From: Dehalobacter sp. DCA
GTDB lineage: Bacteria > Bacillota > Desulfitobacteriia > Desulfitobacteriales > Syntrophobotulaceae
NCBI RefSeq assembly: GCF_000305775.1
Contig: NC_018866.1
Coordinates: 1,302,001 to 1,366,000, forward strand
Direction: 5' to 3'
Length of the DNA stretch: 64,000 nt
Shown here: positions 34,106 to 52,561 of the stretch, one piece after another
How the letters are laid out: each line of letters opens with the position of its first letter
Numbering within the stretch: the first letter of the stretch is position 1
Notes under the pieces: generated by a model
Told to the model about the DNA's origin: nothing
Databases searched by the model: none
Seen by the model: the letters and a program-made list of their open reading frames with translations, nothing else
Translations under genes and position numbers: made by a program

Positions 34106-34107
34106 TT

Positions 34108-35104: not shown

Positions 35105-35147
35105 GGAAATAATAAGCGGCTTCATCCTTTTTTGAATGAAACCGCCT
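35105..35147 (-). terminator. Terminator separating accessory block from defence cargo
   Basis: GCGGtTTCAT/ATGAaGCCGC-type stem (35115..35124 with 35136..35145) followed by TTATTATTT on the minus strand. Its stem resembles the terminator at 33261..33301. Confidence 0.6.
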
Positions 35148-35547: not shown

Positions 35548-37266
35548 TCATTTTTCAGGAAAATAATTTCTCTCTCCAAATAGCAGCTCGACCTTTTTTT
35601 GTGAGTTATCACTTAATTTTGATAAAAACACAATAGCCAAATTATACCTAGCCCTTGAACAAATTACGTACAACATATTTTTTGTCTTATCAAATCTAGG
35701 TGTGCCGGCATCGGTTCCATCAAAATAATTACTGAAATTATAGCTTGTCTTCCAATCGTTATCATCAACAAAACAAACAACATTATCAAATTCAGCACCC
35801 TTAGTACCATGATCGGTAGAGAAAGGCGATGTCTTTTTTACGGTATAATATAAATTTTGAAATTGCTTGTATTCCATTTTCATCAAAGCAATAATAAAAT
35901 CATCATGCAGTTCTTTATTATCGTAGATATACTTGATTTTACTTGGCTTTTTCAATAAATTATTATTCCAAACAAACTCAAAGATCTCCTGTATGCTACT
36001 TTTACTTGCCAGTTTAATAAGTTTCTGCATCAGGTTATCCAATTTTGTTTTGTCTTCCATACATATTAGCTCATAAGATGTTTTTGCTAATAATCTCTGT
36101 ATCTTGTTGTTTTGATATAGCTCAATCAATTCTTCTATTTCAAATAGAAAATTAGCGAATGGACAATCTCTATTATCTTTATTCTTGAGTAATTCATCTT
36201 TATTCTTTGCCCTGCGGTTAGTTACGTCCTTGTTTTCTTCGTCATATAAATCGTGAAGTCCAAGATAGCCATTTCTTTTAGCAATGGATTTGGTTACTAA
36301 ATAAAGTCGTTTAATCTCCATCTCTTCTGTTATGTTTAATTCACGATATATTTTACTTGAAATAAATTCCTCAGTATCTAATTCGGTGTCATTTACATAA
36401 TAGCAAACACATCTTCCATGCTTTTCCTCACCTGATTGCCGTTGTTCTATATCACTTCGCAATTTGTTCAGTAGACTAATTACCTCCAAAGAGCACCTAT
36501 AATTTTCGTCTTTGGGAATCTTTTTTAAACTGAATTTGGTATCATCTACTTTGCCAATTGTTTTTACATAAATCTGCTGATTATAGTCACCAAACAACCC
36601 GAACAAAATCGAAGAGTTGTTCTTGACGTTATTTAATAATACCTCTGCAATTTCTTGATTGGTATCCTGATATTCATCAATGAAAATAATAGGGTATGTA
36701 TCCTGAATTATTTTATAAATTTTATTATACTTTCCTAGCAGTGCAGTTGCCAATTTAAGAATATCGTCGTGAGAGACAATTCCTTTTTTACGATCATAGT
36801 AATCTTTGTATTCGATTTTTCCTTTGAATTTATCTAATTCGTCTAATGTCAGTTTGTATTTATCAGCTTTTTCTTTAGCTTCAGCATATTTCTTTGTTGT
36901 TGTTTTTGAGGTCCTTAAGATATCTGTGTTTTTAGTATATTGTGTTTTTAAAATTTCTATCAATTCAAGCTTTAATTCTCTTTGAAAAGGCTTTATTATA
37001 TTCCACAAGAAATCATGAATAGTTTTAACATCTATCAACTCATTTGCTTGAATTCTATCAATAATTTCTTCTTTAGCAACATTCGTATATGTAATACATG
37101 CTATTTTTCTGTTTGCTACTTTTAATTGATTTCCTTTAACTTGTAGAATATAAAACAGGGCTTGTACCAAGCTCCAAGTTTTGCCGCTTCCGGCACCAGC
37201 CTCAACAATAAAGCTTTCATTATTGTCAATACACCTCATGATAAGATGTTCTACTTTGCTAGCCAT
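35548..37266 (-). CDS. gajB: GajB-like UvrD-family helicase
   Basis: A 572-residue superfamily 1 helicase, with Walker A EAGAGSGKTWSLVQALFYIL (about 20-38), Walker B IIFIDEYQDTNQEI (about 192), HGTKGAEFDNVVCFVDD (motif V-like) and VICSRARYNLAIVFL (motif VI-like). Paired with the adjacent OLD-type nuclease it matches Gabija GajB, which senses DNA termini or nucleotide state and cooperates with GajA to degrade phage DNA. It overlaps the GajA-like gene by 16 bp and has its own GGAGG. It is the last gene of the cargo operon. The low GC matches the rest of the cargo. Confidence 0.8.
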   Translation of the reverse strand: MASKVEHLIMRCIDNNESFIVEAGAGSGKTWSLVQALFYILQVKGNQLKVANRKIACITYTNVAKEEIIDRIQANELIDVKTIHDFLWNIIKPFQRELKLELIEILKTQYTKNTDILRTSKTTTKKYAEAKEKADKYKLTLDELDKFKGKIEYKDYYDRKKGIVSHDDILKLATALLGKYNKIYKIIQDTYPIIFIDEYQDTNQEIAEVLLNNVKNNSSILFGLFGDYNQQIYVKTIGKVDDTKFSLKKIPKDENYRCSLEVISLLNKLRSDIEQRQSGEEKHGRCVCYYVNDTELDTEEFISSKIYRELNITEEMEIKRLYLVTKSIAKRNGYLGLHDLYDEENKDVTNRRAKNKDELLKNKDNRDCPFANFLFEIEELIELYQNNKIQRLLAKTSYELICMEDKTKLDNLMQKLIKLASKSSIQEIFEFVWNNNLLKKPSKIKYIYDNKELHDDFIIALMKMEYKQFQNLYYTVKKTSPFSTDHGTKGAEFDNVVCFVDDNDWKTSYNFSNYFDGTDAGTPRFDKTKNMLYVICSRARYNLAIVFLSKLSDNSQKKVELLFGERNYFPEK

Positions 37267-39371
37267 ATCAATCCCTCCTTAATATAAGTCGGAACAGACC
37301 AGCCCTTCGATGAGACATACATTAAGTCAAATGTAAAATCAGATTTTTTATTATTTGTATCAATATATTCGTATATATTATAAGAATTATTTAGGATCTC
37401 ATCTGCGTCCTTATAATCACTAATATTACTTTTGACACTTTCTAACCGGTCTTTCATGTTAAACATATACAGCCAATTATCAATAATAAATGCTTCTTCA
37501 AAGGAGCGCCCGCATTTGATATTTGCTTTTGTGTCGTATATATTTCTTTGAAACGACACATTAACTAATTGCTTACTATTCTGATTAAACTTATTGAAAA
37601 TCAGCTCTTTAATCTTTTTCTTCCCAGGTTGCCATTTTATTAAGGTCTGATTTGAGGTTACCAACTGTGATATATAATCTGATTTGATTTCTTTCTTTTT
37701 ATCACGAGTCATTTTAGGTGTTTTACCATCTTTCAAAAAAACAAGATTACCATCCTTGTCCATTTCTTGCTCAGATAGACAACTATCCACATCTGTAATA
37801 ATAAGAGTTTTTATCCCCAAAAACTCAAGGAACTCCTTGAACTTATACATATAAGCTCCACCAATTTCTATTATTGCAATATATTGCTCAGAAAGTACAC
37901 GCAGTTTCTGGTACTCAGGCTGCGACTTTATTAGATTATCTATTTTTATAAGAAACAATGGCATTAAAAGACGTTCACATAAACCTTCAACTAAAATGAT
38001 TTTATCTGCGAAAAACATATCACATTTTACAAGTGTAATATATTGCTTTAGAAACTCAATTGTGCCGTCATCAAAAGGTTCATCATGAGTTACTTTCTTT
38101 TTAGTATCGATTTCAAATTCCAATAAATCCTTTACAGTTACAGAATACTCATTTCTATTGAAATACCTAATATTTTCAAATTTTGCATTTGAAACTATAT
38201 GAGGAGAATGCGTGGATATAACAATCTGAACATTTATTCCATTTTGTTCCATAAACTCACTTAACTTTGTAATAAAGGTCTTCTGTAGCTGTGGGTGCAT
38301 ATGAGCTTCAGGTTCTTCTATGAATATTAGATTTAAATCAGAATTAAGTTCTTTAATTTGCGACCTAAAACAAAGCATTTCGGATATGATATAGATTAAA
38401 TTGCTATATCCTAATCCATTATATCTTTCTGGAAGTAAGTGTTCCTGATCTTTGTAAAATAATTGTATTCCACTAAATAAATTTGTTAGAGTTACATTTG
38501 ATTTTAATATAAGATCTGAACCTTCCACATTAGGATATCCAAAAGTAGAAAATGAAGCTGTAAAATCCCTAAAGAATGATGCTAATTTTGTATCTATATC
38601 ACCATTAGCTTTCTCCATAGTATCGCGTAATTTTTCTAATTCAGGTAATGTCTCATTTTCTTTTGACTTTTCACAGTTTTTATATTCACGCTGAAAAACT
38701 GGTGCTAATTTAGAATTTGTTTTTGAATTACTGTCTTCAACCTGCCTTTGTGCTGCTATAAAGTAACTACTTATTATTTTTTGAATGTCTGTATACTTTA
38801 CCTCATCTGTATATATATCTTGGTAAATTGGTTTTATAACACAACCATAAAAATCATTAATCGTTTTTGATATTTCTCCCAAAATACATTGTTTTTTATT
38901 TTGCTTTTTAGTAGATAACTTTGAAATTGTATTAGTCAATGAATCAAAGAATTTTTTTGGCTCTTTAATTTTAAATGCAAACAGAATATGTAAGATATTA
39001 TTATTATCTAATGTAGTTAAAAGAGGTCTGATATTGCTCCAATTATCGTCTTTTCCATATTCAATATCTAGCTCCAGTTCAATTGCAGGCAGCTTGTCAT
39101 CAATATTTGTGAAATAATCTTCCAGTAAGTCTTCTTTATCCTTTACAGATAAATATTCATTATATGCACTTATAAATTTTTCTTGACAAGCAATCGAAAA
39201 ATCATTAAATGTAAACTCTTTGGTATTCTTCAAAAAAGTTTCAAAAAGATATGAAAACGATGTTTTACCGGAATTGTTTTTTCCTACTAAAATTGTGGTT
39301 TCTTCATCAATCCGAATAGCACAATTTTCTAACAATCGATAATTGCGTATTTTCGCATTAGTTAATTTCAT
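37251..39371 (-). CDS. gajA: GajA-like OLD-family ATPase/TOPRIM nuclease
   Basis: A 706-residue protein. The ABC-type ATPase has Walker A LVGKNNSGKTSFSYLFETFL (about 29-48), a signature-like GLGYSNLIYIISEML, Walker B LIFIEEPEAHMHPQLQ (about 347) and the H-loop VISTHSPHIVS. It is followed by a TOPRIM domain with IILVEGLCERLL (about 455) and ITDVDSC (about 525). This is the GajA layout, a nucleotide-regulated DNA endonuclease of Gabija. The ATG at 39371 has GGGGGAAAAGAT before it. It is longer than the canonical GajA I recall (under 600 residues), with extra sequence in the ATPase insert and after TOPRIM. Confidence 0.8.
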   Translation of the reverse strand: MKLTNAKIRNYRLLENCAIRIDEETTILVGKNNSGKTSFSYLFETFLKNTKEFTFNDFSIACQEKFISAYNEYLSVKDKEDLLEDYFTNIDDKLPAIELELDIEYGKDDNWSNIRPLLTTLDNNNILHILFAFKIKEPKKFFDSLTNTISKLSTKKQNKKQCILGEISKTINDFYGCVIKPIYQDIYTDEVKYTDIQKIISSYFIAAQRQVEDSNSKTNSKLAPVFQREYKNCEKSKENETLPELEKLRDTMEKANGDIDTKLASFFRDFTASFSTFGYPNVEGSDLILKSNVTLTNLFSGIQLFYKDQEHLLPERYNGLGYSNLIYIISEMLCFRSQIKELNSDLNLIFIEEPEAHMHPQLQKTFITKLSEFMEQNGINVQIVISTHSPHIVSNAKFENIRYFNRNEYSVTVKDLLEFEIDTKKKVTHDEPFDDGTIEFLKQYITLVKCDMFFADKIILVEGLCERLLMPLFLIKIDNLIKSQPEYQKLRVLSEQYIAIIEIGGAYMYKFKEFLEFLGIKTLIITDVDSCLSEQEMDKDGNLVFLKDGKTPKMTRDKKKEIKSDYISQLVTSNQTLIKWQPGKKKIKELIFNKFNQNSKQLVNVSFQRNIYDTKANIKCGRSFEEAFIIDNWLYMFNMKDRLESVKSNISDYKDADEILNNSYNIYEYIDTNNKKSDFTFDLMYVSSKGWSVPTYIKEGLIWLAK

Positions 39372-39429
39372 ATCTTTTCCCCCTGATTTCAATTATTAAA
39401 CTTAAAAACGCAGGACTGTATATCGCAAC

Positions 39430-41058
39430 TTACCCTCTACCTAATCTTCGCTTTTGGAGTTTTTTCCATATTGCTCTAAACTGCTTACAAACACTTAATT
39501 CAATACCTAACTGTTTAACTAAAATTTCTTCATCCACAATATCTAATGCAATCTCTATATCCTCATTATTACGTACGGTACTATCAATTTTTTGAAGCAG
39601 AGGATATTTCTTTTCATCATCAATCTTATCAAGTTTAGGTAGCATAATATTTCCAACCTCACCAGGTAATATTTCAAGTACACCACCCCCGTAGCTTCGT
39701 CCGCAAATTTCAGTAAAAGCAAACGAAATACTATTGTAGTACGAGAGCAATAGGGTCTCAGGATCAACGCTATCATTAAACTTTACCCTGTGCATAGTAT
39801 CAGTAGAAACCGCCTCACATTGATTTAAAACAAATTTTGGGTACAAGTTATTCCTTCTTAAGAAAAAAGCATCCGGAACCCATACAGAAGGAACAATATA
39901 CCACCTATCACGTATCGAGCATTTATAGCCTTTGTTTTGCCCTTCCTGTTCGCCTTTTTGAATATACTCTTTATGCTTATCAGAATAATTTTCGTAAGGC
40001 ATATCTGGGAAATTGATTAGTTGTGCCTTTTTGCCATTTCCAACATTTTTCATCCAATCTTCTTTCGTGAAGTATATTCCATGTGCATGAGCACTACGTC
40101 CAATTAACGGAAGCAAAACAGGGGAGAGGTCATATTCTTTCGCTTTTTTACTATCAATCGAGAAATAATCATTATTTCCTGTTGTTATCCCAACATTAAT
40201 AATTCCGCAGTCTGAAAATTTTTGAAAGCGACTATCCTTTTTTATTTTCTGGATTAATTCAATTTCTTGGCTCGTTGTAAAATACTTTGTCCATTTTTCT
40301 TTTACATGCTGCATTTTCTGGTACCCATTCGCGGCAAGATCAATAGCACTAAAATCATCTAAATCGCTCATTTCAAATATACGAATACCTTTTTCTTCGT
40401 TACCCTTTTCGCCAACAAAGACCAGTACTTCCTGCTCTATGTCAGGGAAGACCAATTTTTCAAATGTAATCAATGTTATTTTTGAAAAATGGTTGGACAA
40501 ATATAGTCTCAAGTCCTCTGCATAAGCAACCTGCAAAATTTCTGCAGGAATCACAAATGCAATTTTCCCATTTTCACTTAGCATTTGCACACAGGCAACC
40601 AAAAACCCCACCCAGGCATTAATTAATTTATTTGACTTCATTCCATGAGTGATCAATATTTTTGATTGAATTTCTCTTTGCGATTCAGTTAAATATTGAT
40701 ATCTAATATATGGCGGATTACCTAAAATCAAATCATATTTCGTTGTCTTGTATGATTCATTGTAAAAATCGAAAAAATCCTTGCACTGTATGTCAATATT
40801 TTTATATTTTGCAAAACGGTTTTTTAATAAATCAACCTCGCTTGTTTCAATCTCGATTGCTCTAAATAAATCTATATTATTAATTAAGTCAGCTTCAATA
40901 GCAGCATCAATAAAAACACCATCACCACAGCTAGGTTCTAAAATAGTCTTTATAGTCTTATCTGCAGCAAAAATACCCACCATTGCACTTGCAAGCTGCA
41001 TTGGCGTATAATAAGCTCCTCTTAATTTTTGATCTGTATTATCTTTCTTCAGTCTCAT
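39430..41058 (-). CDS. N6-adenine DNA methyltransferase (TaqI/Eco57I type)
   Basis: 542 residues. Motif I is ILEPSCGDGVFIDAA (about 38-52), and catalytic NPPY is in DLILGNPPYIRYQYLT (about 108). The C-terminal half is a TaqI-like target recognition region. It lacks a nuclease domain, so it is a modification subunit, presumably partnered with the type IIG enzyme upstream. The ATG at 41058 follows the upstream stop by 4 bp; a start at 41079 would overlap it. Co-transcription with the Gabija-like pair suggests one composite defence unit. Confidence 0.8.
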   Translation of the reverse strand: MRLKKDNTDQKLRGAYYTPMQLASAMVGIFAADKTIKTILEPSCGDGVFIDAAIEADLINNIDLFRAIEIETSEVDLLKNRFAKYKNIDIQCKDFFDFYNESYKTTKYDLILGNPPYIRYQYLTESQREIQSKILITHGMKSNKLINAWVGFLVACVQMLSENGKIAFVIPAEILQVAYAEDLRLYLSNHFSKITLITFEKLVFPDIEQEVLVFVGEKGNEEKGIRIFEMSDLDDFSAIDLAANGYQKMQHVKEKWTKYFTTSQEIELIQKIKKDSRFQKFSDCGIINVGITTGNNDYFSIDSKKAKEYDLSPVLLPLIGRSAHAHGIYFTKEDWMKNVGNGKKAQLINFPDMPYENYSDKHKEYIQKGEQEGQNKGYKCSIRDRWYIVPSVWVPDAFFLRRNNLYPKFVLNQCEAVSTDTMHRVKFNDSVDPETLLLSYYNSISFAFTEICGRSYGGGVLEILPGEVGNIMLPKLDKIDDEKKYPLLQKIDSTVRNNEDIEIALDIVDEEILVKQLGIELSVCKQFRAIWKKLQKRRLGRG

Positions 41059-41062
41059 AAAT

Positions 41063-44000
41063 TCACCTATTGAACTCAAGTCTATAAATTCGAGTTACAA
41101 TGCTTTCTATCTCTTTAATCAATCTGTTCTTTTCTCTAATCAGAACACTGGCAGCCCCTTTATTCGGACGATCTATTAATGAGTCATTAATGGAATATAC
41201 TCTTTGTGTCAAAGTAACTATTTTGTCATGAACAGCTTTTTCATGAGCTATATTCATATCCAACTCAACAAAAGGCAGTGTTTGCAATACAAAGGTACCC
41301 CTCGCTGTAAATCCGTTTTCAAAGTCACTGCCGATAATCTCAAGTAACTTTTCAGTATAAGGATGGGTAAGCCATGCTTGTATGTACTCAAGGCTATATG
41401 GACTGTCTTCCTTTAAACTTACAGCACAGTATCCAGCCGTTCCCCCAGAGGCAATCAACATATCATTATTGTCAAAAGCATACATAGGTTCTTTGCTCAA
41501 TACACCAACAATTAGTTTCGGGGTATTAATAAATGATGTCAAATGCTGGGTGCGACCATATTGATACCATGTGTCTTCTGTAGCGTTTTGTACATCCCTG
41601 AAACCTTTTGGAGATACACTCTTTGGCAACAGCCGATTAAAGTAGGACATTAAATATTCGTATGTGGCTGCGTACTCGGATTGCATAGTTTGTATGTTAA
41701 TTAACTTTCCATCTTCGTCATAAGGGAATATAATCCACTTGTCAGTCAAGATGGGGCTATAAGAATTCAACCCTTTTTCACTCTTCTTTGAAGGCTTAAA
41801 ATAGGGTTTTAAAATTTTCTTATTGATATTGTAATTTTTATTGTTTCTTGAAATAGTGAAATATTCTTCTGTTTCATTTACTATCTCGTCATGAGCAAAC
41901 CAGTATACAGGGATAGGCCTTTCCGCACTGGTCTGTATACCGTTGTAAATATCTGCATACTGTGTGATTGGAACAGACACTTCATCAAGCTTTTTGAGCA
42001 ATTGCATGAATTCAATATCAGTTGACAATCTCCAAGGTAGCTCACTTAAAGTATTATTGTTAATAATTATAGAGTTTGTTTCCGTTCCCGCCCATAATGA
42101 AGCTGTAGAATTGACTTTAGTATAAACAAATTCATTATTTTTACGTTTACGAATAAGTAAAATAGAACTATAAATGGTCTTATCTTCAAATAATTGAGCA
42201 TCTCCAAAGTCGTCTAAACTCATTAAATAGCTATTTGAAGCAAGCAATTTTCGTAAATTTTTACCTGAACCAATTTTAAAGAATTTATTCGGAACGATAT
42301 AACATACCATACCATTTTCTTTAATCTTTTCGATTGCCCGTTCAATAAACATAAAATATTTATCAAATTGCTTATACGCTGAGCTATAGGTATTTTTATA
42401 TGTCGAAACTTCTATAGAGGGTAACAAACCATGCATATCTTCTGTACTTACATACGGTGGATTACCAATGACTAAGTCAAATGGATTCCCTTTATTAATA
42501 TGTTCCCAATCAAACGGAACAATTTCTATCCGAACTGCATTGTCTATGCCTTTACCCTGTAAACGAGCACTATCTATTAAGGAATTACCGTAAAAAATAT
42601 TTTTCCTTAGGTTCGGTAATATAGGGGTAGAATTAACTACAGACGGAGCAGTTTCATCTTCAATTAATTTTAACAGCAATGAGAATTTAGCCACTTCGAC
42701 TGCATGTATATCGATATCTATGCCAAAAATGCAGGAACATAAAATGGCTTTCTTATCTTCAAGAGGTAACTTCTTTCTCCCATTGCTTAATTCAATCAAA
42801 TGCTCAGGGCTATTTACTAGATACCATTCAACGCAATAGTGGACTAGATAATCATATACTTCTTCCAAAAATATACCTGAGCCGCAAGCAATATCTGCAA
42901 TCCTTAGATCCAATAATTGCTCTGGAGTTTTACTAAAACAAAGCTCATTCATTGCTTTCGAAACCATGTATTTTACAATTTCAGTTGGTGTAGTAACCAC
43001 TGAACGATTCACACAGTCCTTCTTTTTGGCAAGAACTATCTTTCCATCATCTGAAAGAATAAGCTTTTCAGTCAAAAATGCTTCATAAATCTTACCAAGC
43101 ATATTTGGTTCAATTATGTTAAATAAATATGGACTTTGAGGATAGTATAGTCCTTCAATCATATCCATAATTATTTGGTTATCTAAATCAAAAATAATAT
43201 ATTCGCCTTCAAACAAACCGGAATTATATCGTTTATCGGCAGCATGAAACAACTCAGCAAGATTCTTTTTCATTAGATCTTGATCAGCTATTGTTTCCTT
43301 TAACTTGTGATAAAGCGGTAAATTTCTATCCTCACAGATTCTTAAAAAAACAATCTGATTAATGAATTGTTGAACTACATCATTTAATACTTCAATAGAG
43401 TTGTACTTTAATGGTATTTTCTTAATTTTGTAACTTGTTTCTGCTACCAGTAAATGTTCAGTATTTTTTGATGGCTCATCATGTAATTCGAAATATGTAT
43501 TAGTTTGCCCATACAAATAATTACTAAGGCCTATCCTCCATTCATTGATTTGTTTTAAAAAAAGTTCATCAATTTGCTCAGTCTGTCTGCCTGAAACAGG
43601 GAAATGTTCTTTCATGAACTCATCAAATGTTCCATCATATACTGAATCCCTTGAAATCAACTGCATGATCTCGTTTATCTTTTCCACATATTCTGTGTAA
43701 TGATACTTGCGGTATCGCGCAACAGCCGTCTCATCAGTATCCTTTGGAATACATGTTGTATCATAAATTACCAGATATTCAAAGTTAGTAAGTACAGCTA
43801 TTTTATGCTTAGCATTCCAGCCATATTTTCTTGTTTGAAAAGCTGGTTCTGTCGCTGTAGAAATTTCAACCGCAGGCTTTTTCGCTTCAACAAATAGTTT
43901 TGTAACGCCCTTAAGGGTAAGCGAATAATCAGGTCTATCTGTTTCATTCGAATAATTTTCCGCTATTACTTCTCTGTATTGTGGAGGTAAGCCTTTTTCA

Positions 44001-44149
44001 TTAGCAACATCCCATCCCAATATTTTTAATAAAGGGTCTATATATTCGACTCTACATGAATGTTCATTGTAAGCATTTGAACTGTTCTTGTAGTATTGAA
44101 GGTTTTTACTAAATCTTTCTACTAGCGATTTTATTTTTAGAACACTCAT
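41063..44149 (-). CDS. Type IIG-like restriction-modification enzyme
   Basis: A 1028-residue fusion protein. The N-terminal nuclease-like domain has the PD-(D/E)xK arrangement RPDYSLTLKGVTKLFVEAKK (about 72-91). A helical connector follows, then an N6-adenine methylase with motif I LRIADIACGSGIFLEEVYDY (about 415-434) and NPPY in DLVIGNPPYVSTEDM (about 558). A C-terminal target recognition region contains GTAGYCAVSLKEDSPYSLEY. It cuts and modifies DNA in one polypeptide. GAGGAG precedes the ATG. It is the second gene of the cargo operon, 24 bp after the small HTH protein. Confidence 0.85.
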   Translation of the reverse strand: MSVLKIKSLVERFSKNLQYYKNSSNAYNEHSCRVEYIDPLLKILGWDVANEKGLPPQYREVIAENYSNETDRPDYSLTLKGVTKLFVEAKKPAVEISTATEPAFQTRKYGWNAKHKIAVLTNFEYLVIYDTTCIPKDTDETAVARYRKYHYTEYVEKINEIMQLISRDSVYDGTFDEFMKEHFPVSGRQTEQIDELFLKQINEWRIGLSNYLYGQTNTYFELHDEPSKNTEHLLVAETSYKIKKIPLKYNSIEVLNDVVQQFINQIVFLRICEDRNLPLYHKLKETIADQDLMKKNLAELFHAADKRYNSGLFEGEYIIFDLDNQIIMDMIEGLYYPQSPYLFNIIEPNMLGKIYEAFLTEKLILSDDGKIVLAKKKDCVNRSVVTTPTEIVKYMVSKAMNELCFSKTPEQLLDLRIADIACGSGIFLEEVYDYLVHYCVEWYLVNSPEHLIELSNGRKKLPLEDKKAILCSCIFGIDIDIHAVEVAKFSLLLKLIEDETAPSVVNSTPILPNLRKNIFYGNSLIDSARLQGKGIDNAVRIEIVPFDWEHINKGNPFDLVIGNPPYVSTEDMHGLLPSIEVSTYKNTYSSAYKQFDKYFMFIERAIEKIKENGMVCYIVPNKFFKIGSGKNLRKLLASNSYLMSLDDFGDAQLFEDKTIYSSILLIRKRKNNEFVYTKVNSTASLWAGTETNSIIINNNTLSELPWRLSTDIEFMQLLKKLDEVSVPITQYADIYNGIQTSAERPIPVYWFAHDEIVNETEEYFTISRNNKNYNINKKILKPYFKPSKKSEKGLNSYSPILTDKWIIFPYDEDGKLINIQTMQSEYAATYEYLMSYFNRLLPKSVSPKGFRDVQNATEDTWYQYGRTQHLTSFINTPKLIVGVLSKEPMYAFDNNDMLIASGGTAGYCAVSLKEDSPYSLEYIQAWLTHPYTEKLLEIIGSDFENGFTARGTFVLQTLPFVELDMNIAHEKAVHDKIVTLTQRVYSINDSLIDRPNKGAASVLIREKNRLIKEIESIVTRIYRLEFNR

Positions 44150-44173
44150 GCCTAATCTCCTCTCATCTCATTA

Positions 44174-44347
44174 TTATTTTTTATCTTTGAATCTGGCATC
44201 TTTGGGTTTTTCCGCATCTGATGGTATAATCCAAACGGTTCCTACTTTTTGAGCACCATTTATACGTCCTTGATTGCAAAGGACTTGTATGCGACGTCTT
44301 GTTATCTTCCATTTTTCCGCCGCTTCAATTACGGACATATATTCCAC
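44174..44347 (-). CDS. Small HTH (excisionase/MerR-like) protein heading the defence operon
   Basis: 57 residues from a GTG at 44347 with GGAGG 9 bases upstream. The helix-turn-helix pattern is SVIEAAEKWKITRRRIQVLC followed by the wing-like GAQKVGTVWIIPSDAEKP. It belongs to the small excisionase/HTH_17 DNA-binding type. It sits between the operon promoter and the restriction enzyme, where controller proteins of R-M systems are often found, so autoregulation of the cargo is likely. An alternative is recombination directionality factor, given the recombinases next door. Confidence 0.7.
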   Translation of the reverse strand: MEYMSVIEAAEKWKITRRRIQVLCNQGRINGAQKVGTVWIIPSDAEKPKDARFKDKK

Positions 44348-44383
44348 GATGTAAATTCCTCCTCAAAGTATAAACATGGAAAT

Positions 44384-44437
44384 ATTATATACCATTTGGC
44401 GAACAATAACAAGCACATAATTATGATCTTTCGCCAA
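44384..44437 (-). promoter_or_regulatory. Promoter and inverted repeat of the defence operon
   Basis: -10 TATAAT (44384..44389) and -35 TTGTTA (44407..44412) with a 17-bp spacer, reading leftward. A perfect 8-bp inverted repeat TTGGCGAA (44396..44403) and TTCGCCAA (44430..44437) spans the spacer and -35. It is a plausible operator for the small HTH protein. Confidence 0.65.
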
Positions 44438-44441
44438 GACT

Positions 44442-44467
44442 AAAATCCTCAGCTTACTGAGAATTTT
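44442..44467. terminator. Terminator between recombinases and defence cargo
   Basis: AAAATcCTCAG (44442..44452) pairs with CTGAGaATTTT (44457..44467) around a four-base loop. A second hairpin TGCCAG/CTGGCA follows at 44473-44495. Together they insulate the cargo promoter from recombinase transcription. Confidence 0.7.
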
Positions 44468-44528
44468 CATCTTGCCAGCTTCTGTCTTCTGGCAGGAACA
44501 GCCGGATCACAGCCGTCCCTGCCTTGTG

Positions 44529-46181
44529 TTAATCAAAGTATGAAACCCGCTGATTCATCACGATTCCGGATTTGAATTGGATCTCAATTAGGTCGTCCTT
44601 GACGGCCTTGATGCTTTGCAGGAGCCTCCTTACCAAGTCATTGTCAAATTCCCCGACCTCGCAGGTAGTTTTCTTTAGGCAGGCATCCATGTCCTCAACT
44701 CTTTGCTGAAAATTCGCCGCCATTTTCTGCTCCCGCACCAGCTCCAGCTTTTTCTGCTTCAGATCGTTGATCCGCTCCGCGATCCTATGATACTGCTCGT
44801 CAAAATCCTCTGTTATAGAACCCTGTTTAGCGTTTTCCTCTATCAAGGCCAGCATCTCAGCCTGCAGCTTTTCAATCTGCCCGTCATATTCGGTAGGTAC
44901 ATTTTTGGTAGAGTAGTTACCGATAACCCGGATTACATTTTCTCGGAAGGCACCGACAAACTCGCCGCGATTCTCCACAACACTGTTTATAGCAGTCATT
45001 ATTGCTTCATGCAGGACATCCTCTTTAAATGTAGGCGAGTGCTTACAGTTCTTTGTCCCGTTCTTCAGGCGGTTATCACATCGCCACACAGCAGTTTTCT
45101 GTCCGTATTTAGACCATATCTGCCTGCGATATGGCTGACCGCATTCCTTGCAGACCATAATATCGGTTAAGGCGAATTTGGAGCTGTATTTGCTTTTCTC
45201 CTTCTTTTCCTTTCTGGCGACTGAGGGTTTATGGAGGCTTGCCCGCCTCGCTTTTTCCTCCTGCACCTGATAATAAAGCTCCTTGGGGATAATAGCTTCA
45301 TGGTCATCCTCTATGTAATACTGGGGGACGATGCCTTTGTTCAGTACCCGTTTTTTGGTGAGGAAATCGATGGTATAGGTTTTCTGCTGGAGGACATCGC
45401 CCATGTATTTTTCGTTGCTCAGCATTTTATTAATAGTGCCGGGGCACCATTTATCCAGACCTGTGACGGTGGTGATACCTTCCGACTCTAATATCTTGGT
45501 GATCTGCACAATACTGCTTCCTTCGAGGTAAAGCCGAAAAATTCGTCTGACCAGCTCTGCTTCCTCTGGTACGATGACCAACTCATTGTTCTTGTCCTTG
45601 GTATAGCCTAAAAACTTATTGTGATTGACCGAGACGATGCCGTTCTCAAATCGTCTGACTAGGCCCCACCGGGTATTCTCACTGAGGTTTCGGCTTTCCT
45701 CCTGTGCCTGACTGCTCAGGATGGTTATTAAAAGCTCGCCGGTACCATCCAGTGTATTCACACCCTCTTTTTCAAAAAATACGGCTACGTTCTTTTCCTT
45801 GAGCTTGCGTATGTTCTGGAGGCTGTCTACCGTGTTTCTGGCGAAGCGGCTGACTGACTTGGTGATGACCATGTCGATTTTTCCGGCCATACAGTCCTCG
45901 ATCATGGCATTGAAGTCATCGCGCTTTTTGGTGTTAGTTGCGCTTTTGCCGTCATCGGCAAAGATTCCGGCAAGCTTCCAGTTGGGATTGCTCTTTATTT
46001 TTTCGGTATAGTAGGAAACCTGAGCTTCATAGCTGGTTTCCTGCTGCTCCAGCGTGGTGCTGACGCGGCAGTATGCTGCCACCCTAAGTGCTTTAAACTG
46101 GGGCTTTATGCTCCTGTCATACTCCGGCTGCGGAGGTATGAAGGATATACTTTTCTTTTTAGCTGTCGCTGTCTGCATCAT
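44529..46181 (-). CDS. Large serine recombinase, copy 3
   Basis: A 550-residue recombinase. The resolvase domain has the catalytic Ser in AAYCRVSTTLEQQETS (about 35-50), KSVSRFARNTVDSLQNIRKL and the Arg residues. A recombinase domain (FENGIVSVNHNKFLGYTKD) follows, then a zinc ribbon (VCKECGQPYRR with later Cys residues) and a coiled coil (about 450-500). Large serine recombinases integrate and excise mobile elements at att sites. It is the last of three consecutive recombinase genes. Confidence 0.85.
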   Translation of the reverse strand: MMQTATAKKKSISFIPPQPEYDRSIKPQFKALRVAAYCRVSTTLEQQETSYEAQVSYYTEKIKSNPNWKLAGIFADDGKSATNTKKRDDFNAMIEDCMAGKIDMVITKSVSRFARNTVDSLQNIRKLKEKNVAVFFEKEGVNTLDGTGELLITILSSQAQEESRNLSENTRWGLVRRFENGIVSVNHNKFLGYTKDKNNELVIVPEEAELVRRIFRLYLEGSSIVQITKILESEGITTVTGLDKWCPGTINKMLSNEKYMGDVLQQKTYTIDFLTKKRVLNKGIVPQYYIEDDHEAIIPKELYYQVQEEKARRASLHKPSVARKEKKEKSKYSSKFALTDIMVCKECGQPYRRQIWSKYGQKTAVWRCDNRLKNGTKNCKHSPTFKEDVLHEAIMTAINSVVENRGEFVGAFRENVIRVIGNYSTKNVPTEYDGQIEKLQAEMLALIEENAKQGSITEDFDEQYHRIAERINDLKQKKLELVREQKMAANFQQRVEDMDACLKKTTCEVGEFDNDLVRRLLQSIKAVKDDLIEIQFKSGIVMNQRVSYFD

Positions 46182-46200
46182 GGCTTCTCCTTCCTTTGGT

Positions 46201-47085
46201 TTAATATCCGGTTTCCATTGTTAATCCGTTTATAAATTCAAACACCAGCCGATGGTCGGCGTAGACGGTTATTTGCTTTATCACTGTTCGAAACAAATCC
46301 TCATCAAATTCTGTGAGAGACTGTCTGCCTGAAAACGCCTGCTTCATCTTTTCGTTGTTATATTCTGCGTCATCGACTTTCGCCGTTTTATAGAAAGCTT
46401 GTGCACGCTTAAAAATAAGAGCCGGAAGCTCCTTGGACGAATACCGCCCTTCTGCTTCCAGCTCCTTAATACGCTGATCCAAGCTATTAAATTCAGTGTT
46501 ATTGTGAATCGGCTCCTTCTTAGGCTTCCGGTCGAGGATTTGTATCCTTGCCAGAATACGGTTGGCTGCCTCAAGGAAGGCTTTTTCAATCTGCTCATCC
46601 GTGAGGAAACCGCATCGGCAGCACACTCGGTTTTTGTAAATATACCTCTTGCACTTCCAGAAGGACTTCTCCGACGTTTTACCGCAGTGCTCGATGTATT
46701 TTCGGTAAACCTCGCCGCATTCTCCGCACCGGAGCTTTCCGGTGAACGGGTATTGGCGGTTCGCACTGTTTGGCTGAATACTTCGCCCCAGCTGATCACA
46801 GCGTTCTTTACGACGTTTCTGCACCTGCTCGAACAGCTCGACGGCAATCATCTGCGGATAGAATTCATCCCCAAGATATTTGACATTCTCCAGTATCTTG
46901 CCGATGGAGCCGTGGTTCCAGGAGGCTTTGCTGTTGGCATTCGGAAATCCCATTTCGGTCAGCCGCTTGGCAAGAGCAGAGGTGGAGGTACCGGATAGAT
47001 AATCTGCAAATATCTTTTTCACAACAGCGGCTTTGGGTTCATCAAGCTGTATTTTTCCTTCTATCAGCTTATATCCGATGGGCAT
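46201..47085 (-). CDS. Recombinase-like protein lacking the catalytic domain
   Basis: 294 residues from the ATG at 47085 (MPIGYKLIEGKIQLDEPKAA). It has only the recombinase DNA-binding domain (WNHGSIGKILENVKYLGDEF), zinc ribbon (LRCGECGEVYRKYIEHCGK, later CKRY and CCRCG) and helical end. The resolvase domain with the active Ser is absent, and the start matches homologues that begin the same way, so this is not a fresh truncation. It probably forms a heteromer with the catalytic recombinases on either side and directs site choice. It overlaps the upstream gene by 17 bp. Confidence 0.75.
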   Translation of the reverse strand: MPIGYKLIEGKIQLDEPKAAVVKKIFADYLSGTSTSALAKRLTEMGFPNANSKASWNHGSIGKILENVKYLGDEFYPQMIAVELFEQVQKRRKERCDQLGRSIQPNSANRQYPFTGKLRCGECGEVYRKYIEHCGKTSEKSFWKCKRYIYKNRVCCRCGFLTDEQIEKAFLEAANRILARIQILDRKPKKEPIHNNTEFNSLDQRIKELEAEGRYSSKELPALIFKRAQAFYKTAKVDDAEYNNEKMKQAFSGRQSLTEFDEDLFRTVIKQITVYADHRLVFEFINGLTMETGY

Positions 47086-48700
47086 GTGCCTTTGCATCAT
47101 CCTCTATCGCCTCCTTCCTGCAGGGTTCGGACAGCTCCAGCCTGTTGATGAGCTGGAAGGTAATTTGTCCGTTTTTCTGTACGGTTACCTTGTCTATAGC
47201 CTGTAAAAATAAATCCTCACGGTATTCTTCAATAACATGAGGATTGTTTATGATCAGTTCCATAAGATGCTCTGTTCCGGCGATCTCTATGTCGAAGCCG
47301 TTATTGTCCAGAAGCTGGCCCCTCTTCTTTTTCACAGCGACAAGCTCTATAGTCAGAGCATTTTGCCGCTCTATAAATACTGCAGGGTCAATATACCCCT
47401 TTGATACCAGTCTGCTAAGTATATGACCCTGCTCTGTCAGCTCCATGATTCTGTTACTGTATTCCCCAATTTCCCGCTCCTGCTGCTCGTCCATTCGGAG
47501 CTTTTTAAGCGTATCCAGCAGGGGAGTGAGAATTTCGGCATAATTGCTTACAAGCTTGTTCCACATCACGGTAAACGCCCATTGGATGTCATCTTCTCGG
47601 ATTGCCTTTTGGCTGCATTTGATGTAGTCCAAAATGTGCTGACGACAGCACCATTGGGTTTTCTCATAGGGCTTGCCGATGTAGATTTTTTGCCTCCGGA
47701 ACATACCACCGCATTCGCCGCAGAGAATTTTACTGCTGAAGGCATACCGGCTTTGGTATTTGCTCGTATCGTCCACCCCCATCTGCTTTCTACGGTACTC
47801 AAAGATTTCCCTGACCGCCTGCGCCTGTTTATGTGAGATAATAGGTTCATGGTTGTCCTCTACTAGGTACTGAGGAAGCTGGCCCTTGTTTCTCTGTCGC
47901 CTAAAGGGCAGTACCTCTGTGGTCATGGTTTTCTGATGAAGCAGATTTCCAGTGTAAATGGGATTTAACAATATCTCCTTTATCACACCGTCGTTCCATT
48001 TTTCAGCTGAGCGTATGGTGGAGATCCCTTCCTCCGATAAATCCTTGGCGATTGCATAAGTACCCTTGCCGTTTAAGTATTCTCGGAAAATGCGTCGGAC
48101 TACCGCAGCTTCTCCTTCTTGAATGATCAGCTCGCCGCTTTCATCCTTGGTATAGCCGTATGCGGGAGTACCAAGGATGAAGGTACCGTCCTGAAAGCGT
48201 TTTATCACCGCCCATTTGCTGTTGGTGGAGATGCTTTCGGATTCGCCCTGTGCCAAGGAGCTTAAAATGGTCAGCATCAGCTCGCTCTTCTCCGACAGGC
48301 TGTCGATATGCTCCTTTTCAAAATAGACGGCGACACCAAGCCCCTTCAAGCGGCGGATTGCCTCGATGCTGTCTACCGTGTTTCTGGCGAAGCGGGTCAA
48401 GGATTTCGTGATGATCATATCAATTTTGCCGTCCTCGCAGTCCTTCAGCATCCGTAAAAAGTCATATCTTTTTTGAAGTTTTGTCCCGCTTCTTGCTTCA
48501 TCAGCGTAGATTCCGGCGAACTGCCAGTCCTCTTGATTTTCAATCAAGGCGGTATAATACTCAAGCTGTGCGGTGAAGGAATTCTGTTGCTCACGGGAGT
48601 CGGTGCTTACCCGGCAATAGGCGCAAACTCGCTTTTTCGGCTGTAATTGCCGAACGACCTGCTGCTTGACAGGGTCAATTTTTGTTATCTTTTTTGCCAT
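47069..48700 (-). CDS. Large serine recombinase, copy 1
   Basis: 543 residues from the ATG at 48700, which has GGAGAGAAAGTC upstream. The resolvase domain includes VCAYCRVSTDSREQQNSFTA (catalytic Ser about 27) and TKSLTRFARNTVDSIEAIR. The recombinase domain (LGTPAYGYTKDESGELIIQ), zinc ribbon (LCGECGGMFRRQKIYIGK, CCRQHI) and coiled coil follow. It is an active-looking integrase. It precedes the catalytic-less partner and copy 3, and follows the small 53-residue protein. Confidence 0.85.
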   Translation of the reverse strand: MAKKITKIDPVKQQVVRQLQPKKRVCAYCRVSTDSREQQNSFTAQLEYYTALIENQEDWQFAGIYADEARSGTKLQKRYDFLRMLKDCEDGKIDMIITKSLTRFARNTVDSIEAIRRLKGLGVAVYFEKEHIDSLSEKSELMLTILSSLAQGESESISTNSKWAVIKRFQDGTFILGTPAYGYTKDESGELIIQEGEAAVVRRIFREYLNGKGTYAIAKDLSEEGISTIRSAEKWNDGVIKEILLNPIYTGNLLHQKTMTTEVLPFRRQRNKGQLPQYLVEDNHEPIISHKQAQAVREIFEYRRKQMGVDDTSKYQSRYAFSSKILCGECGGMFRRQKIYIGKPYEKTQWCCRQHILDYIKCSQKAIREDDIQWAFTVMWNKLVSNYAEILTPLLDTLKKLRMDEQQEREIGEYSNRIMELTEQGHILSRLVSKGYIDPAVFIERQNALTIELVAVKKKRGQLLDNNGFDIEIAGTEHLMELIINNPHVIEEYREDLFLQAIDKVTVQKNGQITFQLINRLELSEPCRKEAIEDDAKAHAHRI

Positions 48701-48780
48701 GACTTTCTCTCCTTTCTCTCGTTTTTGACTCCTGTTAGCAACACACAATACCACACAAACTTTGAGATATCCAGGTGTTT

Positions 48781-48942
48781 TTACGCATATACCTTGGAAA
48801 GCTCTGGAGTGAAGGTTTGACGGTTCAGTTCATCGATTTTTTTATACTCGGCAGGGGAGATAAGGCCGTTACGGAGCATGATATCCAGCAGCTTTAATGC
48901 CACCTTGTATTTCACTTCATTAGCCGACTGATCCTTTGACAT
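48781..48942 (-). CDS. 53-residue SHOCT-like protein
   Basis: From the ATG at 48942 (GGAGG 10 bases upstream) to TAA at 48781. It reads MSKDQSANEVKYKVALKLLD, then NGLISPAEYKKIDELN and ends SKVYA. The pattern LxxNGLISxxEYxKI resembles the short oligomerisation (SHOCT) motif. I recall small proteins of this kind accompanying recombinase trios in Firmicutes elements. It may act as a directionality factor or assembly aid. Confidence 0.6.
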   Translation of the reverse strand: MSKDQSANEVKYKVALKLLDIMLRNGLISPAEYKKIDELNRQTFTPELSKVYA

Positions 48943-48958
48943 ATCTCGCAACCTCCGT

Positions 48959-49666
48959 TTACCGCATAGAAAGGAAAGGGCTTTGATAATTCAGCCGGAT
49001 TCGACCCTCCAGTGGTGAATAGAGCTCAATGCCCAGCTGATCCAGTCCCCGCAGAAACTCCAGCAATTCGGCTGTATCCCGCCCTAGGCGGTCAAGCTTC
49101 TTTACAAGCAATACATCCATTCTGCCATCACCGGCAGCCTTCATGACCTCCGCAAGACCGGCATGGTCAAAATCCAGCCCGCTTCCTATATCCTCTGATT
49201 CGCCGACAACAACAAATCCCATCTGTTCTGAGTAATCCATAAGCTCCTTCTTCTGGCCTTTCAGGACACCGTGGGTATCCTCCGGTGCGTCGATCCGGCA
49301 GTAAATCCATGCTCGCTTCTGGCTTCCATGGCTTAAAAATTCAAGAGCCTCATCAACGCTCACAATCGGAATACTGACAGGCTCCTTTTCACCCATCTGT
49401 ATGGGTACCAGCTCTTTCGTGATCTCCTGCAGAAGCCTCTGGTCCGGACAGCAGTTGATAAATTCGCCAAAGGTGTCCAGAACCAGCTTATCCAGCATAT
49501 CCGTTAAAACCATCTTGTCCGCATGCACTTTTTTCAGCATAATAAAGCTTGCAATGCCGGACGGGGATTTCTCAAAATAGAATTCCTGACACTCTCCGTC
49601 AAGCCCGTACACATATCCGATAATTAGCTCCTTCTTTAGCAATTCAGCTAACACTTTCTTTTCCAT
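48959..49666 (-). CDS. Degenerate resolvase fused to an accessory domain
   Basis: 235 residues. Residues 1-95 match the free-standing protein at 33339..33671 and end LVPIQMGEKEP. Residues about 117-235 are a resolvase-type domain (RAWIYCRIDAPEDTHGVLKG, VLLVKKLDRLGRDTAELLEF). The catalytic Ser expected after YCR(V/I) is Asp here (YCRIDAP), and the SRLxR element is KKLDR, so classical strand cleavage is unlikely. It may be a regulatory or structural recombinase subunit. It lies upstream of the active recombinases and could modulate them. Confidence 0.7.
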   Translation of the reverse strand: MEKKVLAELLKKELIIGYVYGLDGECQEFYFEKSPSGIASFIMLKKVHADKMVLTDMLDKLVLDTFGEFINCCPDQRLLQEITKELVPIQMGEKEPVSIPIVSVDEALEFLSHGSQKRAWIYCRIDAPEDTHGVLKGQKKELMDYSEQMGFVVVGESEDIGSGLDFDHAGLAEVMKAAGDGRMDVLLVKKLDRLGRDTAELLEFLRGLDQLGIELYSPLEGRIRLNYQSPFLSMR

Positions 49667-50226
49667 TACGTTTTCCTCCCTGATATTTTGAATTTAATCT
49701 CAGAAGGATACGGCAGGACGAAAAAAAGACCGCCCTGCCGCATAGTTTCCGAGATCAAAAATAATCTGCTTGTTCTTCATTGCGAATTGCCGCTTCTATT
49801 CGACACTACTTCCCGAAGCGAAAAAACCTTACGGCTCTTAGGGCGGCAGCATAAATGGTTTGCCGGTTAAGCAAACGCCATAGGAATTTAACCTCTCCCA
49901 GGATCTCTGCGAGCCGCCCCCATTGCTTGAGTCTGTGGCTGGGCGGAAGTAGCATTATCACTGTCCATTTCATTGCGAAACAGTCCACCACGGACTGTTT
50001 TATGACCGGGCGTTCCCGCTCGTCACCTTCGATGCCATCGGTTCGACGGATGAAATCCATCCGCAGGCAGTCTTGGCGCGCCCGTCAACGTCGCTGCCGC
50101 TTTTCACACGGCTGGACAGCTCATGTATCTATGCTGCCGGATATAATATTTTCAAAGAACAACAGGAGATAAACAATTCCCCTCACTTCTTTAGGGAAAA
50201 AAGTGAGGGGTTGGACCAAAAAACTT
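49667..50226. other. 560-bp region without a convincing gene
   Basis: Short open frames exist on both strands (for example 49806..50060 minus) but lack ribosome sites. Structure seen: a CGGCAGG/CCTGCCG inverted repeat (49711..49740) and a CCCCTCACTT hairpin at about 50178-50213 with no following T-run. The position next to the recombinases is where an attachment or regulatory site could be, but no direct repeat was identified. Confidence 0.35.
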
Positions 50227-50643
50227 TTATTTTTCTAAAAGTTTTTTGAGCTGACTCAATATTCGTTTTTTGCGATTGTGTATGGTCATGCGAGGAATAC
50301 CAGTTTCTGCAGACAATTGATGCTCACTTTTTTTGAGGTAATAAAGCGCTATAATCAGCTGACGTTCATTTTCATTTAACTGCAGCAGACATTGTTTAAG
50401 CCTTTTAACCATATCGCGCTGAACAATTACATCCTCCATGGAATCCTCTGCAGTAGAAATTATGTACTCCACGGAGATGCCTTTCTCATTGCATCCTTCA
50501 AGCGAGATATTGTTATCCTCCGCCAGCTTGTCCATGTATTTCTCTCTGTCCCGGCAGTGGTAATATGCTTTGTAGACCTCCTTGGCCACTGTGACACGCG
50601 TCCCTCTGACCAGCAGGGTATATTTTTTATCATGGCTATTCAT
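50227..50643 (-). CDS. Small sigma-70-like factor of the element
   Basis: 138 residues from the ATG at 50643 (GGAGG 8 bases upstream). The C-terminal region-4-like HTH is LNENERQLIIALYYLKKSEH followed by TGIPRMTIHNRKKRILSQLK. The N-terminal half is charged (YKAYYHCRDREKYMDKLAED). Proteins of this type are common in Firmicutes conjugative transposons and act as activators or sigma factors for excision and transfer genes. Its position just downstream of the ImmR-controlled leftward promoter fits an early regulator. Confidence 0.75.
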   Translation of the reverse strand: MNSHDKKYTLLVRGTRVTVAKEVYKAYYHCRDREKYMDKLAEDNNISLEGCNEKGISVEYIISTAEDSMEDVIVQRDMVKRLKQCLLQLNENERQLIIALYYLKKSEHQLSAETGIPRMTIHNRKKRILSQLKKLLEK

Positions 50644-50800
50644 AAGCTTGTCCTCCATTTCGTGAATCTGAAAATCCGGAAATGAAGAACAAGCGGAGGA
50701 GATCGGCAGCGAACCGCTGTTTTGTTATTGCATAAAATAAAAGCCACTGGTTTTGCTCCTTTCTGGGGAGCCAAACGAGCAGCTTCTTCTGAATGCAGAA

Positions 50801-50850
50801 CCGGCCGGGCCTGACGCATAGCAATAGTGCTACTCGTCAGGCCCGGCCGG
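50801..50850. other. Perfect 16-bp inverted repeat (GC-rich hairpin)
   Basis: CCGGCCGGGCCTGACG (50801..50816) is exactly complementary to CGTCAGGCCCGGCCGG (50835..50850). The 18-base loop contains a further AGCA/TGCT pair. No T-run follows on either strand. It is far more stable than a typical terminator. It could be a transcription roadblock, protein-binding site or remnant transposon end. About 280 bp around it (50661..50944) has no gene. Confidence 0.7.
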
Positions 50851-50944
50851 CACCTTTATAATCACTCCGCTTTACAAGGGGAGGATAGCGTCAAGCGCTG
50901 GAATCGAATATCATAAGTTCATTTATTTGATTGTGCAGTCTGCC

Positions 50945-51160
50945 TTATAGCTTGAGGTCTGAGAACTTCTTACTCTTATAGACCTCGTTATTGTCCAGCA
51001 AAATTGAAACCTGAGACTTGCATAGATGACACTTTACGTTTACAACATCACTTTCAGCCTCACTCGTTTCAGCTAACAGGGCCAGTGCCTCAGCATTTCC
51101 GCTGTAATCAGCAATTCGGCGTCCGCAATTCGGACATTTGAGCATTATCTTTTTCACCAT
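50945..51160 (-). CDS. Small zinc-ribbon protein
   Basis: 71 residues from the ATG at 51160 (AGGAGGGT upstream). CPNCGRR at the start and CHLC in VNVKCHLCKSQVSILLDNNE form a four-Cys zinc ribbon, resembling the small Com-like translation regulators of phages. It is the first gene of the leftward early transcript from the promoter at 51479..51507. It likely acts as a regulator or nucleic-acid-binding protein. A frame extension to 51262 has no ribosome site. Confidence 0.65.
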   Translation of the reverse strand: MVKKIMLKCPNCGRRIADYSGNAEALALLAETSEAESDVVNVKCHLCKSQVSILLDNNEVYKSKKFSDLKL

Positions 51161-51422
51161 CTCGTACCCTCCTGCATTATTTTCTCTATCAATACAAACG
51201 CCTGCTCTTAAAAAGGGCAGGCATTCGCAAAGATCGGCAGCCAGGCTGTCATAGCGCGGCAAACGCTTTAGACCCTCGGCTTTGCGTCCCTGCCTTTAGA
51301 CAGGTTTGCCCTTAACTTTATTTACATTTAGCTGTCAGAGTAATTAAAGCCGTCATGCGCTTTGCAGACGGTAATTTTCCGGCAATCCGTTGGTTCAATC
51401 GTTTTCACAGAAGAAATAACTC
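51161..51422. other. Leader region of the leftward transcript
   Basis: About 260 bp without a gene. Hairpins include GCCTGC/GCAGGC near 51200-51222 and CCTG/CAGG near 51291-51305. The long 5' leader of the zinc-ribbon mRNA may be regulated. No known riboswitch pattern was recognised. Confidence 0.4.
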
Positions 51423-51451
51423 TTGACACTATGTGCAACATGAATTATTAT
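51423..51451 (+). promoter_or_regulatory. Rightward promoter for the ImmR/ImmA-like genes
   Basis: -35 TTGACA (51423..51428), 17-bp spacer, -10 TATTAT (51446..51451). Transcription would begin near 51458, giving a leader of about 95 bases before the ATG at 51553. Confidence 0.7.
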
Positions 51452-51488
51452 AAATGTGCATGTTATCTGCATATTTGAATTATATGCA
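51431..51488. promoter_or_regulatory. Candidate repressor operators
   Basis: Two direct ATGTGCA copies (51431..51437 and 51454..51460) and a palindrome TGCATAT-7-ATATGCA (51468..51488) lie between and over the two -10 boxes. They are well placed to be bound by the XRE repressor encoded at 51553..51969. Confidence 0.55.
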
Positions 51489-51507
51489 ATTTACTTTCAC
51501 TTGTCAA
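51479..51507 (-). promoter_or_regulatory. Consensus leftward promoter of the element
   Basis: -35 TTGACA (51502..51507), 17-bp spacer, -10 TATAAT (51479..51484), a perfect sigma-A consensus. It would drive the zinc-ribbon, sigma factor and recombinase genes. Its -10 overlaps the ATATGCA half of the palindrome, so repressor binding would block it. Confidence 0.75.
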
Positions 51508-51552
51508 TATACAATATGAAACTTACCTGCTTATTATAGGAGGGCGGTCTAC

Positions 51553-51969
51553 ATGAAATTCGGAGAAAAAATAAAAAATGCCCGCGTCGCAAAAGACATG
51601 ACGCAGGCGGAACTGGCGCAGGCGGTCGGAGTATCTCTGCGAACAATGGTCAGCTATGAAAACGGAGATTGCTATCCCAAGAAACGCGAGGTATACGGGA
51701 AGCTTGCTGCAGTTTTAGGTGTTGAGATGAATTATCTTCTAACCGAGAATGAGGAGTTTATAAATGCTGCCGGAGAAAAATACGGCTACCGTGGAAAGAA
51801 GCACGCTCAGCAGCTCATCACAGAGGTCAGCGGCCTTTTTGCCGGAGGCGACATGGATGACGAGGATTTGGATGCCGTTATGAGGGCAATCACCGACGCT
51901 TATTGGATAGCCAAGGAGAAAAACAAAAAGTACACGCCGAAAAAGTACCGCAATGCAGACAAGGAGTAG
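51553..51969 (+). CDS. XRE-family repressor (ImmR-like)
   Basis: A 138-residue protein. Its HTH is KDMTQAELAQAVGVSLRTMV with SYENGDCYPKKREVYGKLAA (residues about 14-55). The C-terminal part is helical and acidic, then Lys-rich. With the adjacent HExxH protease it matches the ImmR/ImmA pairs that keep ICEs and phages quiescent until DNA damage or cell-cell signalling. GGAGGGCGG precedes the ATG. It is the only rightward gene pair in the element and faces the leftward early promoter it probably represses. Confidence 0.8.
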   Translation: MKFGEKIKNARVAKDMTQAELAQAVGVSLRTMVSYENGDCYPKKREVYGKLAAVLGVEMNYLLTENEEFINAAGEKYGYRGKKHAQQLITEVSGLFAGGDMDDEDLDAVMRAITDAYWIAKEKNKKYTPKKYRNADKE

Positions 51970-52021
51970 TCCGTTTTTTTGGACTGCTGCTGTGATAGAA
52001 TTAGCATAGGGGGTGAATTCA

Positions 52022-52534: not shown

Positions 52535-52561
52535 CCGTTCTTTCTGAGGAAGGATACAGAC

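What the first reader, a model, noticed from the sequence alone, without database searches (positions are those of the whole stretch)
35548..44347. Five-gene composite defence operon: HTH, type IIG R-M, methylase, GajA, GajB
One promoter drives five tightly packed genes (gaps or overlaps of 58 bp or less), AT-rich compared with the element around them. Gabija is normally described as two genes; here it is co-transcribed with a restriction-modification module and a small DNA-binding protein, and GajA is unusually long. The modules may share regulation or act together (R-M cuts create ends for Gabija).
Basis: partly seen in the sequence, partly recalled or inferred. Interest (0 to 1): 0.7.

Follow-up and report, generated by a model that had tools for sequence, protein, structure and literature searches.

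The report
Mobile restriction-modification plus Gabija defence cassette
Five tightly packed genes make up a transferable anti-virus package that joins a common DNA-cutting restriction system to a second defence called Gabija; a near-copy sits in another bacterium, so the join is real and conserved, but whether the two halves work together is untested.

Summary
Window 35548-44347 (minus strand) encodes a 57-aa HTH_17 protein, a type IIG restriction enzyme-methylase (IIG), an M.Eco57I-type methylase (MT), a GajA-like OLD nuclease and a GajB-like UvrD helicase. All are intact and AT-rich (32% GC against 45-47% around). "GajA unusually long" is wrong: its start is probably an internal ATG (706 aa), and its relatives are 658-717 aa.

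The five-gene order is not unique. A MAG (L021) carries it with 85-92% protein identity, strong purifying selection (dN/dS 0.08-0.12) and unrelated flanks. HTH/RHH+IIG+MT is a widespread stand-alone R-M unit. Gabija lies near it in 4 of 22 loci examined, in three different arrangements; only the window/L021 lineage is one tight operon. A relative (G389) has an RloC/PrrC-like ATPase gene where Gabija sits here.

The cassette fills a cargo slot beside three serine recombinases. The same recombinase module occurs five more times in four other genomes, each time beside a different defence or candidate-defence cargo.

Best reading: mobile two-layer immunity, R-M first and end-directed Gabija second, sharing expression. 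Composition and mobility are shown; cooperation is inferred. New variant of a known kind.

The parts
44384..44412 (-). promoter-like site TTGTTA-17-TATAAT upstream of the operon
   Evidence: 10 of 12 matches; hexamers and spacing conserved in L021. Inferred only.
44433..44503 (-). about 70-bp slot leader with hairpin, shared with the recombinase modules of other genomes and carried with the cassette in L021
   Evidence: 75-87% identity between L021 4989-5058, the window and boundary copies in L080-L083.
44174..44347 (-). 57-aa HTH_17/excisionase-like DNA-binding protein, probable regulator of the R-M unit
   Evidence: Pfam HTH_17 1.9e-6; 88% identical in L021.
41063..44149 (-). Type IIG restriction enzyme-methyltransferase (IIG), 1028 aa: N-terminal HSDR_N PD-(D/E)XK nuclease (P73-D74, E88-A89-K91 invariant), Eco57I-type N6A methylase (NPPY 563-566)
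   Evidence: (PADLOC 5e-258).
39430..41079 (-). separate N6-adenine methyltransferase (MT) of the M.Eco57I type, 549 aa (in-frame ATG at 41058 may be the true start)
   Evidence: Pfam M_Eco57I_C 2.3e-36; PADLOC MTase_II 1.4e-179.
37251..39371 (-). GajA-like OLD nuclease, about 706 aa from the ATG with conserved RBS: ABC ATPase plus TOPRIM (E469, G512, D534, D536 in 713-aa numbering, all invariant)
   Evidence: active-site definition from PMC10781630.
35548..37266 (-). GajB-like SF1 (UvrD/Rep) helicase, 572 aa
   Evidence: AlphaFold model pLDDT 78.7 matches UvrD/Rep and, at E 3e-11, B. cereus GajB 8sm3_B.
44529..52622 (-). recombinase module adjoining the cassette: three large serine recombinase genes (44529-46181; 46201-47100, lacking the resolvase domain; 47069-48754) plus small genes
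   Evidence: mostly 83-92% DNA identity in G003, G013, G034 and G044 (twice), each beside different cargo.

Best explanation
A mobile composite defence cassette. An ordinary Eco57I-class R-M unit (small DNA-binding regulator, type IIG cutter-methylase, extra methylase) has a two-gene Gabija system appended downstream, so that one promoter probably expresses all five. Shown: composition, tight packing, conservation of the five-gene unit in a second genome with unrelated flanks, purifying selection on all five genes, and residence in a cargo slot beside serine recombinases. Inferred: the R-M enzyme cuts unmethylated incoming DNA at its site, while GajAB attacks linear DNA ends, chiefly when a phage blocks the host end-processing nuclease (RecBCD/AddAB). 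The two layers thus cover different escape routes, and the shared transcript keeps them together on transfer.
For: Family and domain assignments. Same order in L021 with cassette-only DNA homology, window 35553-44503. dN/dS 0.08-0.12 for all five genes. TOPRIM and helicase motifs invariant. HTH/RHH+IIG+MT exists as a stand-alone unit on many plasmids and viral contigs, so the cassette is R-M plus Gabija. The recombinase module is reused with different defence cargo in four other genomes. Gabija acts on linear DNA lacking RecBCD in Pseudomonas (PMC12407980).
Against: Only two instances of the five-gene unit were found. Synonymous divergence is uneven (GajA 0.31, MT 1.10), so the halves may not share one history. 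No transcript data. GajA has no sequence match to solved B. cereus GajA even with a profile at E 10, so activity like experimental Gabija is assumed from PADLOC models and domain layout.
Confidence: 0.75

Rival explanations
1. Mere co-location: two independent defence systems that landed side by side in a defence cargo slot, with no shared regulation or cooperation.
For: R-M and Gabija each occur alone in relatives: G389 has IIG-MT without Gabija (L032), G003 has GajAB without IIG (L026). The slot carries varied defence genes. In L. brevis and Rhizobium the two systems are neighbours but not one operon.
Against: 58-bp spacing without a conserved promoter, and retention of the exact five-gene order in L021 with unrelated flanks.
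Confidence: 0.4
2. R-M-triggered Gabija: restriction breaks or inhibition of the R-M enzyme directly activate GajAB as a second-line effector, as PrrC guards EcoprrI.
For: In G389 the gene 46 bp downstream of the same IIG-MT pair encodes an AAA_13 ATPase with a CPFC motif, RloC/PrrC-like. RloC responds to DNA breaks and PrrC to anti-restriction proteins (PMC3874168). Gabija targets linear DNA (PMC12407980).
Against: Gabija ignores a cos-ended plasmid while RecBCD works. RloC activation in A. baylyi did not need its R-M system. Gabija normally exists without R-M.
Confidence: 0.2
3. The HTH gene is a recombination directionality factor (Xis-like) for the element rather than an R-M regulator.
For: HTH_17 is related to excisionase domains (NCBIfam 'excise', below cut-off), and serine recombinases lie next door.
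Against: It travels with the cassette to L021, away from these recombinases. Other copies of the recombinase module carry different DNA in place of it. Small HTH/RHH genes precede many stand-alone copies of this R-M unit.
Confidence: 0.12

Closest known systems
Eco57I-type (type IIG) restriction-modification
   Same: One-chain nuclease-methylase plus separate N6A methylase with the M.Eco57I C-terminal domain; intact catalytic motifs; often a small regulator upstream
   Different: Recognition site unknown; two Gabija genes follow in the same probable operon; a 30-aa insert (about residues 218-247) absent from all eight aligned relatives
Gabija (GajA-GajB)
   Same: OLD ATPase-TOPRIM nuclease with the complete active site, followed by an overlapping SF1 helicase gene; strong PADLOC GajA/GajB scores
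   Different: About 706-aa GajA subfamily with no sequence match to solved B. cereus GajA; placed downstream of an R-M unit instead of standing alone
EcoprrI-PrrC and R-M-linked RloC
   Same: An R-M locus with a second ABC-ATPase effector gene beside it
   Different: The effector here is a two-gene DNA nuclease-helicase, not an anticodon nuclease; no evidence of direct control
SCC-type elements and defence hotspots of mobile elements
   Same: Large serine recombinase genes with exchangeable defence cargo at a fixed boundary
   Different: Three recombinase genes in a different group of Firmicutes; attachment sites not mapped; cargo boundary marked by a repeated leader of about 70-100 bp

Membership tests
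Gabija | GajA: ABC ATPase plus TOPRIM with E, G and DxD active-site residues | tested here: met
   AAA_15 7e-52, OLD-like_TOPRIM 1.5e-15; E469, G512, D534, D536 invariant; definition from PMC10781630
Gabija | GajB SF1/UvrD helicase directly downstream | tested here: met
   16-bp overlap
Gabija | Detectable sequence relation to experimentally validated B. cereus GajA | tested here: inconclusive
   PADLOC GajA models 1e-182, but a profile search of the PDB to E 10 finds OLD 6p74 and PtuA, not B. cereus GajA; the GajA structure model was too poor to use (pLDDT 55)
Gabija | 4:4 GajA-GajB complex and anti-phage activity | not testable with these tools
   Needs experiment
Eco57I-type type IIG R-M | Nuclease and N6A methylase in one chain with intact motifs | tested here: met
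   HSDR_N and Eco57I domains; invariant D74, E88, K91 and NPPY
Eco57I-type type IIG R-M | Separate M.Eco57I-type methylase alongside | tested here: met
   PF22837 2.3e-36
Eco57I-type type IIG R-M | Asymmetric recognition site with cleavage at a distance | not testable with these tools
   Needs methylome or digestion data
SCC-like serine-recombinase island | Defined att sites flanking recombinase genes plus cargo | tested here: inconclusive
   Module conserved to 52622-52708 and variable cargo below 44433, but no shared repeat of 10 bp or more between the two ends tested
EcoprrI/PrrC-type guarded R-M | Anticodon-nuclease effector linked to and silenced by R-M | tested here: not met
   Linked effector is GajAB, not an AAA_13 anticodon nuclease; the resemblance is only in layout

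The most novel reading that the evidence does not exclude
A family of R-M cassettes in which the position after the IIG-MT pair is an exchangeable socket for DNA-break-sensing ABC-ATPase effectors (Gabija here, an RloC-like protein in G389). Restriction breaks, or failure to process them, would license the second effector, making R-M a targeting front end for Gabija.
Probability: 0.18. Interest if true: 0.75.

Novelty: new variant of a known kind. Interest (0 to 1): 0.45.

Why it matters
How Gabija chooses foreign DNA is an open question; recent work says it attacks linear DNA lacking RecBCD. A natural, conserved operon that couples Gabija to an enzyme that makes ends only on foreign DNA offers a ready test of whether ends are the licence. 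The slot beside three serine recombinases, filled with different defence or candidate-defence genes in each copy examined, also shows how such cassettes are shuffled between species.

Tried and rejected
GajA structure prediction was too poor to use (pLDDT 55); not searched. Direct searches of viral contigs with single IIG and GajA proteins found no relatives; a profile of IIG was needed. The wider genome survey for IIG found one other case in a 398-genome phylum sample (G389) and none besides the window in 83 genomes of the class, so frequencies are weak. Literature searches listed no title or abstract describing an R-M/Gabija operon; most subscription papers are not covered. The rumA site near 35285 was considered as the cassette's attachment site and set aside: it marks the end of the neighbouring element.

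Full report
What is there. Five minus-strand genes run from 44347 to 35548. Pfam and PADLOC name them: HTH_17 protein; type IIG restriction enzyme-methylase; M.Eco57I-type methylase; GajA; GajB. Catalytic motifs are intact: PD...EAK and NPPY in IIG; in GajA the E469/G512/D534/D536 set that defines a class 2 OLD TOPRIM site; helicase motifs in GajB. GajA almost certainly starts at the ATG at 39371, behind an AGGGGG site kept in L021, giving 706 aa and a 58-bp gap after MT. Its close relatives are 658-717 aa, so its length is ordinary for its subfamily.

Is it a unit? Yes, in at least two genomes. MAG Firmicutes bacterium ADurb.Bin193 (L021) has the same five genes in the same order, 85-92% identical over aligned residues. 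DNA homology runs from window 35553 to 44503 and stops there on both sides. dN/dS is 0.08-0.12 for every gene. Synonymous divergence is uneven (GajA 0.31, GajB 0.57, HTH 0.67, IIG 0.83, MT 1.10), and DNA identity steps up at the MT/GajA border. This suggests some exchange of the Gabija half between related cassettes.

What the parts do elsewhere. IIG with MT, often behind a small HTH or RHH gene, is a common stand-alone R-M unit on plasmids and in viral contigs. The HTH gene is therefore most simply the R-M unit's own regulator. Among 22 IIG-MT loci read, Gabija lies within about 10 kb in four: the window, L021, Levilactobacillus brevis pKB290-1 (GajA-GajB, then a reversed small gene, then IIG-MT) and Rhizobium p11515TR-B (GajA-GajB-MT-IIG). 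Those two put Gabija upstream and not in one tight operon, so the neighbourhood arose more than once but the operon form was seen in one lineage only. The sample is small and no matched control was run. In G389 the gene 46 bp after MT is instead an AAA_13 ATPase with a CPFC motif, RloC/PrrC-like.

Where it sits. The DNA just upstream (44433-52622) is a module with three large serine recombinase genes. It recurs, mostly at 83-92% identity, in G003, G013, G034 and twice in G044, each time with different DNA below 44433. PADLOC finds defence genes there: type II R-M with helicase (G044 C17), type II R-M with Qat (G044 C8), Lamassu LmuAB (G003), type I-like methylase with a defence-type kinase (G013), candidate PDC-S50 (G034). 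A 70-100-bp leader with a hairpin follows the recombinase gene. Copies of it occur between cargo blocks in G044 and at the head of the cassette in L021, which has no such recombinases directly beside it. L021's cassette thus probably passed through such a slot (inference).

How it probably works. R-M restriction of unmethylated DNA is the expected first layer (established knowledge of type IIG systems). For the second, a 2025 preprint reports that Gabija attacks linear DNA from which RecBCD is excluded and leaves a cos-ended plasmid alone unless RecBCD is absent or end-binding phage proteins are present (PMC12407980). I favour complementary layers sharing one transcript, and rate direct coupling at about one in five.

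Counter-defence. An IMG/VR phage contig (L033) encodes an orphan methylase 66% identical to MT with no IIG in the stretch held, consistent with a phage protecting its DNA from this R-M type. ArdA-like antirestriction genes lie in the neighbouring element.

Noticed in passing
window 44433-52622; L080-L084, L091-L095: Three-serine-recombinase module with a variable slot that carries a different defence or candidate-defence cargo in each of five other copies; a 70-100-bp leader with hairpin is repeated at cargo boundaries.
   Followed up: partly
L033 9980-11605: Phage contig with an orphan methylase 66% identical to the cassette's MT and no IIG gene nearby: probable phage self-protection.
   Followed up: partly
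L032 4508-6871: RloC/PrrC-like AAA_13 gene 46 bp downstream of the IIG-MT pair in G389, where Gabija sits in the window.
   Followed up: partly
window about 35250-35290; L085 9850-9886: Sequence matching the 3' end of rumA. The neighbouring element (25680-35285, about 94-95% identical) is integrated at rumA in G053; in the window the same end abuts the defence cassette.
   Followed up: partly
window 43410-43535 (IIG residues about 218-247): In-frame 30-aa insert between the nuclease and methylase domains, absent from all eight aligned relatives.
   Followed up: no
window 17375-18571, 30872-32050, 16118-17056: Two ArdA-like antirestriction genes and a D12-class adenine methylase in the element adjoining the R-M/Gabija cassette.
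   Followed up: no
L021 13900-14877: A 325-aa protein with a weak EVE domain match starts 45 bp after GajB in L021, possibly a sixth gene there.
   Followed up: no
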